From NCBI GenBank assembly GCA_963662175.1, contig OY759215.1, positions 29,948,066 to 30,012,065 on the forward strand: a DNA stretch of 64,000 nucleotides. The letters run 5' to 3'. Positions 25,205 to 62,390 of this stretch are shown here, piece by piece. Origin of the DNA: Aradus depressus (taxonomy: Eukaryota; Arthropoda; Insecta; Hemiptera; Aradidae). Below the pieces are notes generated by a model. That model was not told the origin of the DNA, did no database searches, and saw only the letters and a program-made list of their open reading frames with translations. Numbering within the stretch: position 1 is the stretch's first letter; every line of letters starts with the position of its first letter. Made by a program: the position numbers and the translations under genes.

Positions 25205-25245
25205 GGCCAACGTTTCGAAAACTCTTAATTTTCTTCTTCAGGGCC
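25205..25245 (-). ncRNA. Hammerhead ribozyme motif, canonical core
   Basis: Minus strand: GGCC, CTGAAGA (25241-25235), a stem II hairpin with arms GAAAA/TTTTC, GAAA, stem III palindrome ACGT, cleavage-site U, then GGCC. The flanking GGCC/GGCC can form a 4-bp stem I. All core nucleotides are intact. Stem III is too short to close on itself but can pair between two copies. Cleavage would fall after the U at 25209. A foldback at 25281-25336 (arms GTGAGTTTGTGTCCAGTA) lies just outside. Confidence 0.72.
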
Positions 25246-25280
25246 TTATAAAGACTTGAGTGGATTTGTGTGGTGAAGAT

Positions 25281-25336
25281 GTGAGTTTGTGTCCAGTATA
25301 GTACTGCTCCAGCACTGTACTGGACACAAACTCACA
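25281..25336. repeat. Foldback hairpin next to a hammerhead motif
   Basis: GTGAGTTTGTGTCCAGTA is followed, after a short loop, by its inverted complement TACTGGACACAAACTCAC. It belongs to the same repeat as the hammerhead at 25205-25245, which has a relative at 46.2 kb. Confidence 0.85.
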
Positions 25337-25586
25337 ACACATTCCCCACACACAGTCGACTCTATTAGCAGTTCTTATAGTATTTATGTTAAGCCTCCTC
25401 TCAAATCCTGTCTTATATTTGGCCGATTTGGATAATAATCAATAGGTGGCGTGTCTATGGAGTTGTGTATACACATATAAAATATGGAGGAGGTGATGCT
25501 TGGGGATGTTAAGGACGCCTCACCACTCAAGCACTCTTTTTATTTTTTTAAATATTTTCTAGTCTCTCCAGAAGGCTTTTAAACAG

Positions 25587-25708
25587 TAGATAAAGTTGAG
25601 ATGCCTATCTATGTGGGAGGGTGGGAAGCCTGTGAGTCTAACCAGTTGAAGTGTGTCAATGGCAGAGGGCTGACCTGCCTCAACCAACAGGGGGCCGGCA
25701 ATGCCAAG
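25587..25708 (+). CDS. Candidate coding exon of an unidentified gene
   Basis: A GC-richer island (about 55% in an AT-rich region), with acceptor TTTTAAACAG before 25587 and donor GCCAAG|gtgaga after 25708. In the open frame two bases are followed by 40 codons with balanced amino-acid use, ending in phase 0. The peptide has three Cys (EACESNQLKCVNGRG, then LTC) and resembles a piece of a secreted small Cys-rich protein. I do not recognise the family. The next plus-strand candidate (38,183) starts in phase 0 and could be joined to it. Transcript evidence is needed before this is treated as a gene. Confidence 0.4.
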
Positions 25709-25909
25709 GTGAGAGGCCCTCACTCCGCTCATCCATCACTCGCTCACTCCAGATACCATCCTCTATCCACTTATCTGGGTCACTGCCATACATCCTTCAG
25801 GAGACAATAGTCACTTCACATCACAGCATCACTCCACTCCTCCTAAACAACATGTGTCTCTCATTTGGGCAAAACAGGGCATGTTTATTGATACTGCGTG
25901 ACTACTAAC

Positions 25910-26070
25910 AAAAGTAATATTGATTTTTATATTACGTTTTCGATCTCCCTTTTAAATCATTTTACCGATTTGGTTGAAAATCAATAGGTGTTGTACTTAT
26001 GGGATTCTGGCCACACTTTTTCGAAAAAACTCAACATCGAACATCTAACCGATTACAGAACAATTCTCCT
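25910..26070 (-). repeat. Family B repeat fragment
   Basis: Minus strand: GTTAGATGTTCGATGTTGAG, CCCATAAGTACAACACCTA and TTGATTTTCAACCAAATCGG match the module core of the family. Confidence 0.6.
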
Positions 26071-26182
26071 GTCTCTACAAACCAAAATGAAAAGAAAATT
26101 TATAATACTAATACATATAATATTTCACAGGTTGTCAAATAAGATGTAGTCTGACCTCTCACAGATTTTTATTTGTATTAGC

Positions 26183-26214
26183 TAGCCGGCTTTCGAGGTT
26201 GCCCTCATCATCAG
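26183..26214 (-). ncRNA. Hammerhead ribozyme motif, left arm
   Basis: Minus strand: CTGATGA (26214-26208), stem II GAGG-GCAA-CCTC with an intact GNRA-type loop, GAAA, stem III palindrome AGCCGGCT, then A. The core is complete. Stem I would be short (GC/GC). Confidence 0.62.
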
Positions 26215-26411
26215 GCACTCTGATGAAATAAAAATCCCCATCTGAGTCACAACGGAGGAGGACAGGAATAACTTACCTATCCCCATCCATGAGTTGAATT
26301 TTAGATGAATTTATTCATTTATAGTTATTTTAATTATAAAAAAATTTGAATTTTATTTACTAAAATATTTTAATTAGGTTAATTTCAATTTTTTTTATTT
26401 CATCAGACTGC

Positions 26412-26443
26412 CTGATGATGAGAGCAATCTCGAAAGCCGGCTA
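26412..26443 (+). ncRNA. Hammerhead ribozyme motif, right arm
   Basis: CTGATGA (26412-26418), stem II GAGA-GCAA-TCTC, GAAA (26432-26435), palindrome AGCCGGCT, A at 26443. Compared with the left arm, stem II has a base-pair change on both strands (GAGG/CCTC against GAGA/TCTC), a compensatory substitution that keeps the stem. Confidence 0.65.
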
Positions 26444-26754
26444 GCTAATACAAATAATAATCTGTGAGAGGTCAGACTACATTAGCCTAAAACGCATTTC
26501 CGTTCAATTTCTTTTAAAACCGACAACGTTTTTAACTGGAAAAGTGATAGTCACTTTCGGTGTTTAATGTCGCATAACTTCTATTCCCTGAAGAAATAAC
26601 TGTAATGAAATTCCGTCAAACTATGTTAAGTAAAAACCTCATTCAAACAGTCGGCGGTGAATCACCGGCAATGTACTTACCCAATGCGAATTAATCGGCT
26701 CTAGGATTAGGATTATAGATGCTGAACATCTAGGTCATAAGCAAATCGGAAGGA

Positions 26755-26900
26755 AGGGAAGGGATCAGAGGAGGGGGCTCAACCCAGCCCTAATAAGTGC
26801 CGATGTAATTAATGTATCGAGATGAAATTAAGTATGAGGATTGGACTCTTGTATAAGAGAAGAATTGATTTTTAGCCAAAATGATCGAGTTGTTTTAGAA
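26755..26900 (+). repeat. Family B repeat fragment
   Basis: CCTAATAAGTGCCGATGTAA, ATGTATCGAGATGAAATTA, then TTGATTTTTAGCC. It follows the palindrome CGGTGAATCACCG at 26655-26667, which ends other copies. Confidence 0.6.
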
Positions 26901-27008
26901 GGACAACGAAAACTTAATTAAAATTGAAAAGATGATACATAAAGCACTTTTTTATTAAACATTTACATTGTTCAATTCCACATACAATTAAACAATATAG
27001 GTTAGGTT

Positions 27009-60293: not shown

Positions 60294-60600
60294 GTATTTA
60301 CCTTTATGTATCTGTTAAACACAATTTATATTTATATATATTTATTATTACACATATTTATATATATAAATAAATATAATATTAATATGATCAAAATAAT
60401 ATACATATATTACTTATTATTTATTATTTTGTGCATATTCATTTTATAGAAACGTTTTTATTTATTTAATGTTATTACTCCCCTCCCCCTTTTTTTAATA
60501 TTTCATTTCTTTTTACATATTCCTATTTATTAGATTACTTTATTTTATTTTTCACAATAGTCAGCGAATATACTTATGAAAAAAAATAAAAACTTATGTT

Positions 60601-60674
60601 TTTTTTTTAAAACAGTATTTCACATAATATAATATATTATGTGAAATAAACTGTTAAAAAAAAAAAAAAAAAAA
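60601..60674. repeat. AT-rich palindrome
   Basis: AACAGTATTTCACATAATAT is mirrored as an inverted copy ending CTGTT, flanked by a T run at left and an A run at right. It can form a long hairpin. Confidence 0.85.
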
Positions 60675-60739
60675 TCTATTATATATTATATAAAAAACAT
60701 CTATTATATAATAGATGGCCTTAAACTCCAAATCCTATC

Positions 60740-60900
60740 CTATAATGTATGGGAGTACTTCCGATATTGCTACGACTTAACAAATACTGCGTTGGTACAG
60801 TGTGACGTGGCAGATGATAGCATTACCGAAAATACTCCCATATATTATATATATTTTATTAAGTGTTTCACTATATCTCTGCAGATAATGTTAAGTGTCA
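60740..60900. mobile_element. Eroded copy of the 62.2-kb foldback
   Basis: ATGGGAGTACTTCCGATATT at the left and TTACCGAAAATACTCCCATA at the right are the two hammerhead arms with mutations. TTTCACTATATCTCTGCAGA at the end matches DNA following the 62.4-kb copy. Confidence 0.55.
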
Positions 60901-61148
60901 AATTTTCTTATGGTTTTATTTTTATCGATTGTAAAAAATATGTCCAATAATAATAAAAAAAATTACATGCTGCAATATACGTGTTCTGATTTAAACGAAA
61001 TTTTTGTATTTAGCACATTTTGGTCATATTGGAGGATTTTCTAAATTTGTATTTATTGTTTTCTCCAATTCGGCGTTATATAAACCAGTAGTTAGATATT
61101 CCTAACATTTAGGCACCGAAGGACGGTACAAACCAGCAAATAGGTTAA

Positions 61149-61172
61149 GACAATAATTGTACAATTATTGTC
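61149..61172. repeat. Perfect 24-bp palindrome
   Basis: GACAATAATTGT followed directly by its inverted complement ACAATTATTGTC. Confidence 0.95.
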
Positions 61173-61179
61173 GTCCGAG

Positions 61180-62010
61180 ACTGCAGTTTGCCCAGCCGGA
61201 GAGAGGTCTATATTAAATGAACCGATATACTTTAAGTGAGTGTCGACTGCGTCTGTTTACCAAGCTAGCTCAGGTTTGAACTGGGCTAGACAGTCCAATC
61301 AGACCCCACTCTAATAAATATTTAATTGTTAAACTGTTTGGACTGGCAAATTTAAATCAAACCCAGATCTCTTGTCCTCCCTTTCCTCTCCGTTCTGGTG
61401 AATTGAGATCCTGGGTTTACCTTCTTTCTGCTCCTCCTCCCTTCCTTGTCTTCTTCACTAGAAATCAGTGCCAATGCCCTCTTATTACTTATACTTTCCC
61501 GAAAATCGATATAAAATTTTCATCATATTTTTATGTTTCAAGGTCATTACAGTAATTTTACACTATTTTTGGAAAGAAGTGTGTGTGTGAACGTACGTGC
61601 GTGGTCAATTTTTCCTACACGATATCTCGCGAATGAGAAATGATATCGACTCCGCTTTGGTGCCAATCGAAGCGTATCATCGTAGATATGATCTGAAAGA
61701 AATTTTTATCAAACTCTGTCCAGCCGTTTTTTTGTTTAAGCAAAAAGACTACTAAAAAAGTGGATTTTAGGATTTCTTAAAAAAGATTTATCTGATCTAA
61801 TTTGTTTTGGTGGCAAGGTAGCCCTTCCTTTAGAGCCAGATTGAAAAATAGGCTGTATATAGCATATATGGCGTCTGAAAATGTTGAACGGGAGGGATGG
61901 TTATGAGAGGGACTAAGCATAAAAATTGTTCTAGCTCATTAACGGATGGTCTGATTGTCATGAAATTTCTCATGTAGCATTCTTAATAGCCCATTGAAAA
62001 AAAAAGGCTA
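61180..62010. other. Repeat-like intergenic DNA
   Basis: Contains phrases typical of dispersed arthropod repeats (GTGTGTGTGTGAACGTACGT, ACGATATCTCGCGAATGAG), but boundaries cannot be set. No gene. Confidence 0.4.
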
Positions 62011-62013
62011 TGT

Positions 62014-62095
62014 GACGTCTTAACCTCCCATTCGAAGGACGGCGTGCTCAAGGTTTTTGCATCCCAAATAAAAACACTTAGAACCCAATAGGGAC
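62014..62095 (-). mobile_element. SINE fragment
   Basis: Minus strand: the middle of the SINE, GAGCACGCCGTCCTTCGAAT followed by GGGAGGTTAAGACGTCA. Confidence 0.7.
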
Positions 62096-62246
62096 ATTTG
62101 TCTCGATTTCCAACCAAATTGATCAAAGGGAAGGGGGAGATCATAGGAATGGGCCTCAACTCAAACAATCCTACTGTTGGACTTGAAAAATAAAATAAAA
62201 CTTGTTTATTTAATATATTGTCTAATTTCACTAACTATATATACAT

Positions 62247-62285
62247 ACATGGGAGTACTTTCGGTATTTCTACCATCCTCAGCCA
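62247..62285 (-). ncRNA. Hammerhead ribozyme motif, left arm
   Basis: Minus strand: CTGAGGA (62282-62276), stem II GGTA-GAAA-TACC, GAAA, palindrome AGTACT, C. Mirror image of the right-arm motif. Confidence 0.66.
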
Positions 62286-62351
62286 AAAGCATAAGAGATA
62301 AGACTATCTAGCATAAGAGATAAGACTATACAGTCTTATCTCTTATGCTTT

Positions 62352-62390
62352 TGGCTGAGGATGGTAGAAATACCGAAAGTACTCCCATGT
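62352..62390 (+). ncRNA. Hammerhead ribozyme motif, right arm
   Basis: TGG, CTGAGGA (62355-62361), stem II GGTA-GAAA-TACC capped by a GNRA loop, GAAA (62375-62378), palindrome AGTACT (62378-62383), C at the cleavage site (62384), then CCA. Stem I TGG/CCA pairs. All core positions are intact. Confidence 0.7.

What the first reader, a model, noticed from the sequence alone, without database searches (positions are those of the whole stretch)
25205..62390. At least five unrelated repeat families share one dimer-type hammerhead ribozyme design
Motifs at 25.2, 26.2/26.4, 42.3/49.0, 39.1/53.9 and 62.3/62.4 kb all follow CTGANGA, hairpin, GAAA, then a short self-complementary stem III whose last U is followed by A, C or U. 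Stem III differs by family (ACGT, AGCCGGCT, ACCGGT, ATAT, AGTACT) but is palindromic each time, so it could pair between two RNA copies where it cannot fold alone. Sequences outside the core are unrelated. Established knowledge: hammerheads with minimal stem III occur in Penelope-like elements and retrozymes. The density and variety within 40 kb is the unusual part.
Basis: partly seen in the sequence, partly recalled or inferred. Interest (0 to 1): 0.88.

Follow-up and report, generated by a model that had tools for sequence, protein, structure and literature searches.

The report
Penelope retrotransposon ribozymes in palindromic insertions
The self-cutting RNA motifs in this stretch of an animal-type genome belong to a known kind of jumping gene (Penelope-like retrotransposons), and several sit in small mirror-image insertions whose structure hints at how these elements copy themselves into DNA.

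Summary
The motifs are real. A strict scan finds 5 dimer-type type I hammerheads in the window and none in 150 shuffled windows; a relaxed one finds 7 against a control mean of 0.13.

The design is already known: minimal hammerheads of Penelope-like elements (PLEs) that cleave as dimers (cited in a review). The 26-kb motif is the pLTR ribozyme of a tandem PLE encoding RVT_1 and GIY-YIG. Two families give 6,366 and 6,787 near-intact motifs genome-wide, controls 0.

The 26- and 62-kb pairs are short palindromes with a ribozyme on each arm. Of 40 examined copies of the 62-kb family, 39 carry a ~41-45-nt tail on exactly one arm, 35 of 39 have 12-15-bp target duplications, and arms match their partners better than random pairing (45 against 161 differences). 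Likely cause: both cut target ends prime on one PLE RNA at two fixed sites. Known kind; the one-tail rule is the informative part.

The parts
62166..62179 (.). left target-site duplication CAATCCTACTGTTG of the 62-kb element
   Evidence: exact 14-mer also at 62497-62510
62178..62305 (-). left arm of the palindrome, ending at site B
   Evidence: inverted repeat; arm limits
62250..62282 (-). hammerhead, stem III AGTACT
62306..62331 (.). centre of the palindrome, 26 nt, shared only with L002 among the 40 copies
62332..62455 (+). right arm of the palindrome
62355..62387 (+). hammerhead, stem III AGTACT
   Evidence: 69 of 80 arms of 40 copies keep the window's 32-nt core unchanged
62456..62496 (+). 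one-sided tail between sites B and A
   Evidence: present on exactly one arm in 39 of 40 copies
62497..62510 (.). right target-site duplication
60741..60891 (+). old copy of the 62-kb family: two short arms and a tail remnant
   Evidence: 84% over 45 nt, 92% over 26 nt of tail; self-palindrome 84% over 32 nt
26125..26143 (-). left end of the 26-kb element at site B
   Evidence: sequence; comparison with 29 other fetched copies
26144..26234 (-). left arm of the 26-kb palindrome
   Evidence: 96% inverted repeat
26181..26214 (-). hammerhead, stem III AGCCGGCT
   Evidence: same family as the PLE pLTR in L088 and L089
26392..26482 (+). right arm of the 26-kb palindrome, truncated before site B, no tail
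26412..26445 (+). hammerhead, stem III AGCCGGCT
25205..25241 (-). hammerhead, stem III ACGT
25155..25362 (-). element around the 25.2 hammerhead: one arm with the ribozyme and an inner inverted repeat at 25258-25362
46140..46413 (.). old palindrome of the 25.2 family, cores decayed
   Evidence: 66% palindrome; 78% over 141 nt to 25.2
30097..30787 (.). old 691-nt palindrome with a hammerhead-like motif at 30154-30187(-), one core mismatch
   Evidence: 70% palindrome; scanner; outer arm 82% over 66 nt to PLE locus L090
42261..42291 (+). hammerhead-like, ACCGGT, stem I mismatch, no inverted partner seen
48990..49020 (+). hammerhead, ACUGGU, no inverted partner seen
39144..39185 (-). decayed hammerhead
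53939..53980 (-). decayed hammerhead related to 39.1
28740..28752 (+). empty target site in the window's Tc1 copy; the related Tc1 in L019 has a 62-family insertion here

Best explanation
The motifs are the minimal, dimer-type hammerheads of Penelope-like retrotransposons (PLEs). Several window copies are short non-coding palindromes made of two head-to-head pieces of a PLE 5' region, each with its own ribozyme. Proposed mechanism: a PLE RNA begins about 23 nt upstream of the hammerhead core. The PLE protein cuts both target strands about 12-15 bp apart. Both new 3' ends prime reverse transcription inside the same RNA, one at start site A and one at start site B, about 41-45 nt nearer the RNA 5' end. 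Both copies run through the uncut hammerhead to the RNA 5' end and are joined there, often with a few extra bases. Shown: the 26-kb motif is the pLTR ribozyme of a tandem PLE; palindromes; one tail; target duplications in the 62-kb family; partner arms alike; arms that reach past the ribozyme's cut site. Inferred: one RNA serving two primers, the order of priming, the RNA start, and that a PLE enzyme moves the 62-kb family.
For: PLE identity: 150 of 150 scored GIY-YIG loci over the cut-off, from 1852 candidates, with tandem spacing 2819 bp and head-to-head neighbours; RVT_1 E 1.3e-12 and GIY-YIG E 1.3e-6 in one 750-aa stretch of open frame; 26-kb hammerhead in the pLTRs on both sides of it. 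End structure: 39 of 40 copies of the 62-kb family have one tail, none has two; in the 26-kb family 20 of 24 two-armed copies have one tail, none two, four none by script; the PLE on C8 ends at A on the left, B on the right, with ACAAAATGGTTTAA on both sides (read by eye). Target duplications of 12-15 bp in 35 of 39 and an empty site. Arms: 45 differences between partners against a random mean of 161, minimum 121 in 2000; variants at 11 sites concordant in 74 copy-by-site cells, discordant in 16. Orientation: of 34 neighbouring exact motifs within 3 kb, 31 are head-to-head, 3 same-strand, none tail-to-tail (first 100 listed sites only). Published: a PLE protein cuts and extends both strands, starts at two internal sites flanking the tail, and needs no ribozyme cleavage (PMC11167929).
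Against: Arms are strictly closer to their own partner than to any other element in only 5 of 40, tied in 20, and 16 cells are discordant, so some elements may use two RNAs. The published protein showed no start-site difference between strands, which does not predict a strict one-each rule. The 40 copies were the best matches to a tailed, full palindrome, so tailless or truncated copies are under-sampled. In the 26-kb family only 8 of 24 two-armed copies show an exact repeat of 8 nt or more at the ends, and the window's own copy shows neither tail nor duplication. No autonomous PLE with the 62-kb pLTR was found; the link is relatedness to L092 (z 6.6), whose reading frame has no Pfam hit. L001/L002 and L016/L029 share centres although their arms differ, which simple rebuilding at each insertion does not explain.
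Confidence: 0.8

Rival explanations
1. Snap-back origin of the palindromes: one cDNA or antisense transcript primes on itself and is copied back, as proposed for rotifer Penelope elements.
For: Proposed in PMC3846280 (passages). It gives matching arms directly. Shared centres with concordantly different arms (L001/L002, L016/L029) would fit copying back across an inherited centre.
Against: A plain copy-back should repeat the tail on both arms or on neither; 39 of 40 copies have exactly one, and the second end always lies near the same site B.
Confidence: 0.2
2. The repeats are metazoan retrozymes: small circular RNAs made by hammerhead cleavage of tandem repeats and reinserted.
For: Type I hammerheads in short AT-rich non-coding repeats, and weak stem III acting as dimers, are described for retrozymes (PMC7229834, parts 1 and 3 of 6).
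Against: Neighbouring motifs are head-to-head, not tandem: 31 of 34 within 3 kb, 3 same-strand. All 80 arms continue past the cut site to one 5' end, which a cut template would not give; copies cut there would however score low in the search that chose these 40.
Confidence: 0.05
3. The palindromes are MITEs, DNA transposons with long terminal inverted repeats that happen to contain hammerheads.
For: Short, non-coding, thousands of motifs, long inverted repeats and target duplications.
Against: The ends are not symmetric: one arm carries an extra 41-45 nt in 39 of 40 copies; duplication length varies from 10 to 15 bp in 38 of 39; the same end structure is seen at a reverse-transcriptase-encoding element.
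Confidence: 0.04
4. The motifs are chance matches to a short consensus.
For: Bare CTGANGA...GAAA matches are common in the window, most without structure; no Rfam hit.
Against: 0 of 150 shuffled windows in the strict test; 6,366 and 6,787 genome matches against 0 for reversed patterns; pairing kept across families.
Confidence: 0.01

Closest known systems
Minimal type I hammerheads of Penelope-like elements (Cervera and de la Pena 2014; Lunse et al. 2017), known here only through PMC7761336 and PMC6155905 passages; the papers themselves are not held
   Same: Type I core, very short stem III, association with PLE pLTRs and dispersed non-coding copies, dimer cleavage.
   Different: The dispersed copies examined here are head-to-head palindromes with one tail; whether those papers describe that could not be checked.
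Penelope elements of the rotifer Adineta vaga (PMC3846280, section 6 and passages)
   Same: Inverted pLTRs, a 31-bp tail optional on one of them, short target duplications, inverted junctions with palindromes.
   Different: Few copies with coding sequence there; here short non-coding palindromes from families with thousands of motifs, duplications mostly 12-15 bp instead of 8-10, and hammerheads not discussed in what I read.
Poseidon of Anolis carolinensis, PAc (PMC11167929, parts 1 and 2 of 4)
   Same: Protein that cuts and extends both target strands, two internal start sites flanking a tail, ribozyme cleavage not needed for insertion.
   Different: In vitro, no start-site difference between strands; here insertions show one end of each kind. 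In the C8 element the tail ends upstream of the frame's first Met by my reading, in PAc the start site is 111-118 nt inside the ORF.
Metazoan non-LTR retrozymes (PMC7229834, parts 1 and 3 of 6)
   Same: Type I hammerheads in short AT-rich non-coding repeats; salamander motifs act as dimers.
   Different: Tandem direct repeats and circular RNAs there; head-to-head pairs here.

Membership tests
Penelope-like element | One ORF with reverse transcriptase and GIY-YIG endonuclease | tested here: met
   L094: RVT_1 and GIY-YIG, for the 26-kb family. Not shown for the 62-kb, 25.2 or 49.0 families.
Penelope-like element | pLTR with minimal type I hammerhead | tested here: met
   L088 and L089 beside the ORF; in L092 an ACCGGT hammerhead is head-to-head with a frame that had no Pfam hit
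Penelope-like element | Tandem or inverted arrangement of copies | tested here: met
   2819-bp spacing at four places and opposite-strand neighbours
Penelope-like element | Inverted pLTRs, tail on one side, short target duplications | tested here: met
   62-kb family 39 of 40 and 35 of 39; C8 element; weaker for the 26-kb family, duplications in 8 of 24
Penelope-like element | Autonomous element carrying the 62-kb pLTR itself | tested here: inconclusive
   only a related pLTR, L092, z 6.6; no search for it was completed
Type I hammerhead ribozyme | Conserved core with stems I and II kept by covariation | tested here: met
   two of the ten motifs have one core mismatch
Type I hammerhead ribozyme | Match to Rfam hammerhead models | tested here: not met
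   no hit in the window; RF00008 none in the genome, control silent
Type I hammerhead ribozyme | Self-cleavage at the predicted site | not testable with these tools
   needs transcription in vitro
Metazoan retrozyme | Tandem direct repeats of about 170-400 bp | tested here: not met
   31 of 34 neighbours head-to-head among 100 listed sites of the 62-kb motif; other families not tested
Metazoan retrozyme | Unit-length circular RNA | not testable with these tools
   no RNA data
MITE (DNA transposon) | Symmetric inverted ends flush with a fixed-length duplication | tested here: not met
   one-sided tail; duplications 10 to 15 bp

The most novel reading that the evidence does not exclude
PLE integration is a two-primer, one-template reaction: both cut target ends copy the same RNA, and because a start site is used once per RNA, one end starts at A and the other at B. 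Short palindromes are then the default product whenever priming falls in the 5' region of a PLE RNA rather than in a downstream tandem unit, and they would account for the dispersed minimal hammerheads reported in many animal genomes. The ribozyme has to stay uncut during integration, so its strong conservation (0.0045 differences per site against 0.0377 downstream) would reflect another step, such as freeing PLE RNA from read-through transcripts or a protein-assisted switch.
Probability: 0.35. Interest if true: 0.68.

Novelty: new variant of a known kind. Interest (0 to 1): 0.45.

Why it matters
How Penelope-like elements insert is unsettled. A genome with thousands of these motifs, many in short bounded palindromes, is a natural record of start sites, target cuts and template use. 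If the one-tail rule and matched arms hold in an unselected survey, they point to two coupled primings on one RNA and tie an in vitro observation (both strands extended, two start sites) to what happens in genomes. It would also suggest where scattered minimal hammerheads in animal genomes come from.

Tried and rejected
Rfam at gathering score and at E up to 10 gave no hammerhead; the 12 listed matches were all below their gathering scores. RF00008 on the genome: nothing, and its control rang nowhere. Retrozyme and MITE readings: rejected by orientation and by the one-sided tail. RNAfold of two copies together did not show a dimer hammerhead for the four motifs tried; not used. A PDB sequence search with the PLE frame found nothing. 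Naming the organism: not achieved; a Tc1 fragment gave no protein hit. Lunse 2017, Cervera 2014 and Craig 2021 are not held. Genome counts for the ACCGGT, 25.2 and 49.0 families were asked for and never answered. Paper searches for related structures; I saw no listing of short palindromic hammerhead elements, but only open-licence PMC papers are covered, not all hits were listed, and few were opened.
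Full report
WHAT IS THERE. A scanner that asks for CTGANGA, a stem II hairpin, GAAA, a self-complementary stem III ending in U, H17 not G and a stem I of at least two pairs finds five dimer-type sites in the window and none in 150 first-order Markov windows. Allowing one core mismatch and G.U pairs gives seven, against a mean of 0.13 and a maximum of 2 in 60 control windows. I wrote the criteria after reading the finding, so the tests are not blind. 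Genome-wide pattern counts add weight: 6,366 matches to the 62-kb motif (35 nt, up to 2 mismatches) and 6,787 to the 26-kb motif (34 nt, up to 3), 0 for the reversed patterns. Stems I and II are kept by different pairs in ten motifs, some of one family and two with a core mismatch (26 of 30 and 29 of 30 pairs). The motifs at 39.1 and 53.9 kb are decayed, and 42.3 kb has a stem I mismatch. Rfam sees none of them.

THE HOST. The window lies in an unnamed assembly of 697.7 Mb in 74 contigs, a eukaryote. Serine-protease exons and a Tc1 transposase (recognised by eye) suggest an animal. I could not name it.

ARCHITECTURE. The motifs at 26.2/26.4 and 62.27/62.36 kb are outward-facing pairs in inverted repeats. 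The 62-kb element is nearly a full palindrome; the genome search returned 80 matches, 40 places on both strands, with 40 of 792 candidates scored. I examined those 40 copies. Both arms start near AGTCTTATC, 23 nt before the ribozyme core. One arm ends at CAAGTCC (site B); the other goes on 41-45 nt to GTTTTCA (site A). This holds in 39 of 40; in L044 neither arm passed the tail cut-off. The tail may be on either side. Because the query carries a tail, tailless copies are under-sampled, but two-tail copies are not, and none was seen. Direct duplications of 12-15 bp flank 35 of the 39 tailed copies; the rest have 11, 11, 10 and 6. The copy in L019 lies in a Tc1 element whose unfilled counterpart is in the window at 28740. 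Centres are 0 to 39 nt, several with scraps of the arms, and unique except that L001/L002 and L016/L029 share theirs.

TEMPLATES. Arms of one element differ by a median 0.8%, elements by a median 3.3%. Random pairing of arms gives 161 differences on average and at least 121 in 2000 trials; the true pairs give 45. At 11 variable sites, variants are on both arms in 74 cells and on one arm in 16. Against a tight reading, an arm is strictly closest to its own partner in only 5 of 40 elements and tied in 20. So the arms usually come from one source, or were made alike later. Gene conversion seems less likely because some elements have drifted arms (L045 9.3%; palindromes at 30 and 46 kb at 70% and 66%). 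All 80 arms reach past the ribozyme's cut site, so these templates were not cut there; copies that were would score lower and may have been missed. Differences from the window copy per site are 0.0032 in the 20 nt before the ribozyme, 0.0045 in it and 0.0377 after it; the 32-nt core is unchanged in 69 of 80 arms.

THE ENZYME. A GIY-YIG search scored 150 of 1852 candidate loci, all over the cut-off, with four open frames above 800 aa, spacing of 2819 bp at four places, and opposite-strand neighbours. One of them, on C8, encodes RVT_1 and GIY-YIG; its best relatives in the protein database are at 38% identity or less with the same domains. The pLTRs on both sides of it carry the 26-kb hammerhead. 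By eye, the insertion ends at site A on the left and site B on the right, with ACAAAATGGTTTAA on both sides, like the short palindromes. Of 30 fetched copies of the 26-kb family, 24 had both arms: 20 with one tail, none with two, four with none by script (L063 shows a tail remnant by eye; L058 is the window copy). In that family only 8 of the 24 have an exact repeat of 8 nt or more at the ends, as expected if it is older, but this is weak support. The 62-kb family is tied to PLEs by its ends and by relatedness to the pLTR in L092 (z 6.6), which is head-to-head with a reading frame that looks PLE-like by eye but had no Pfam hit. The 62-kb body also scores z 3.2 against L088; in such AT-rich sequence low z values mean little.

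HOW IT WORKS. The Anolis PLE protein cuts and extends both target strands in vitro, starts at two internal sites, and the stretch between them is the known genomic tail; ribozyme mutants do not affect insertion; start sites did not differ between strands (PMC11167929, parts 1 and 2 of 4). Rotifer Penelope elements have inverted pLTRs, an optional tail on one and short duplications, and the author favoured self-priming (PMC3846280, section 6 and passages). The copies here fit two primers on one RNA: one copy from B and one from A, both running to the RNA 5' end, then joined. A plain snap-back copy would repeat the tail. One tail and matched arms follow together if a start site is used once per RNA. 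The single template and the order of events are inference, and the shared centres with different arms remain unexplained.

THE RIBOZYME'S ROLE. A review states that minimal PLE hammerheads may cleave as dimers and that their role is unknown (PMC7761336, passages). In a transcript of the whole palindrome the arms are predicted to pair along their length, so the ribozyme could act only in RNAs starting near the centre or in tandem PLE RNAs (inference).

VERDICT. The finding as written describes a published class. The one-tailed palindromes with matched arms are a variant that deserves an unselected survey. On checking, I lowered the best explanation from what I would have given the family alone to 0.8 and the one-template reading to 0.35, because of the arm-distance and 26-family duplication results.

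Noticed in passing
L001/L002 and L016/L029, centres of the palindromes: Two pairs of copies share the same centre although their arms differ, and in L001/L002 both arms differ in the same way. This suggests that a centre can be inherited while arms are remade.
   Followed up: partly
G000:C1:135336-689175: Seven head-to-head motif pairs with the same 79-nt spacing recur at roughly 65- to 135-kb steps near the contig start, as if in a large tandem duplication; these pairs are not independent.
   Followed up: no
51541-51772: A 232-nt palindrome (84%) without a CTGANGA core; it may be another retroelement palindrome that lost its ribozyme.
   Followed up: partly
6880-7229, 13869-14205, 26991-27341, 40498-40788, 63572-63909 and others: A repeated SINE-like family with a tRNA-like start (GCCGGTAGCTCAGTGGT), copies up to 95% alike in both orientations (tRNA likeness by eye).
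   Followed up: no
27732-29149: Tc1/mariner-like transposase frames, also present in L019 (named by eye).
   Followed up: partly
42699-43010, 46760-47056, 54200-54300: Exons that look like a chymotrypsin-type serine protease (by eye).
   Followed up: no
13656-13795: A perfect tandem duplication of 70 bp.
   Followed up: no
L096: On C7 two PLE copies meet head-to-head with GIY-YIG-coding stretches as an inverted repeat at the junction.
   Followed up: no
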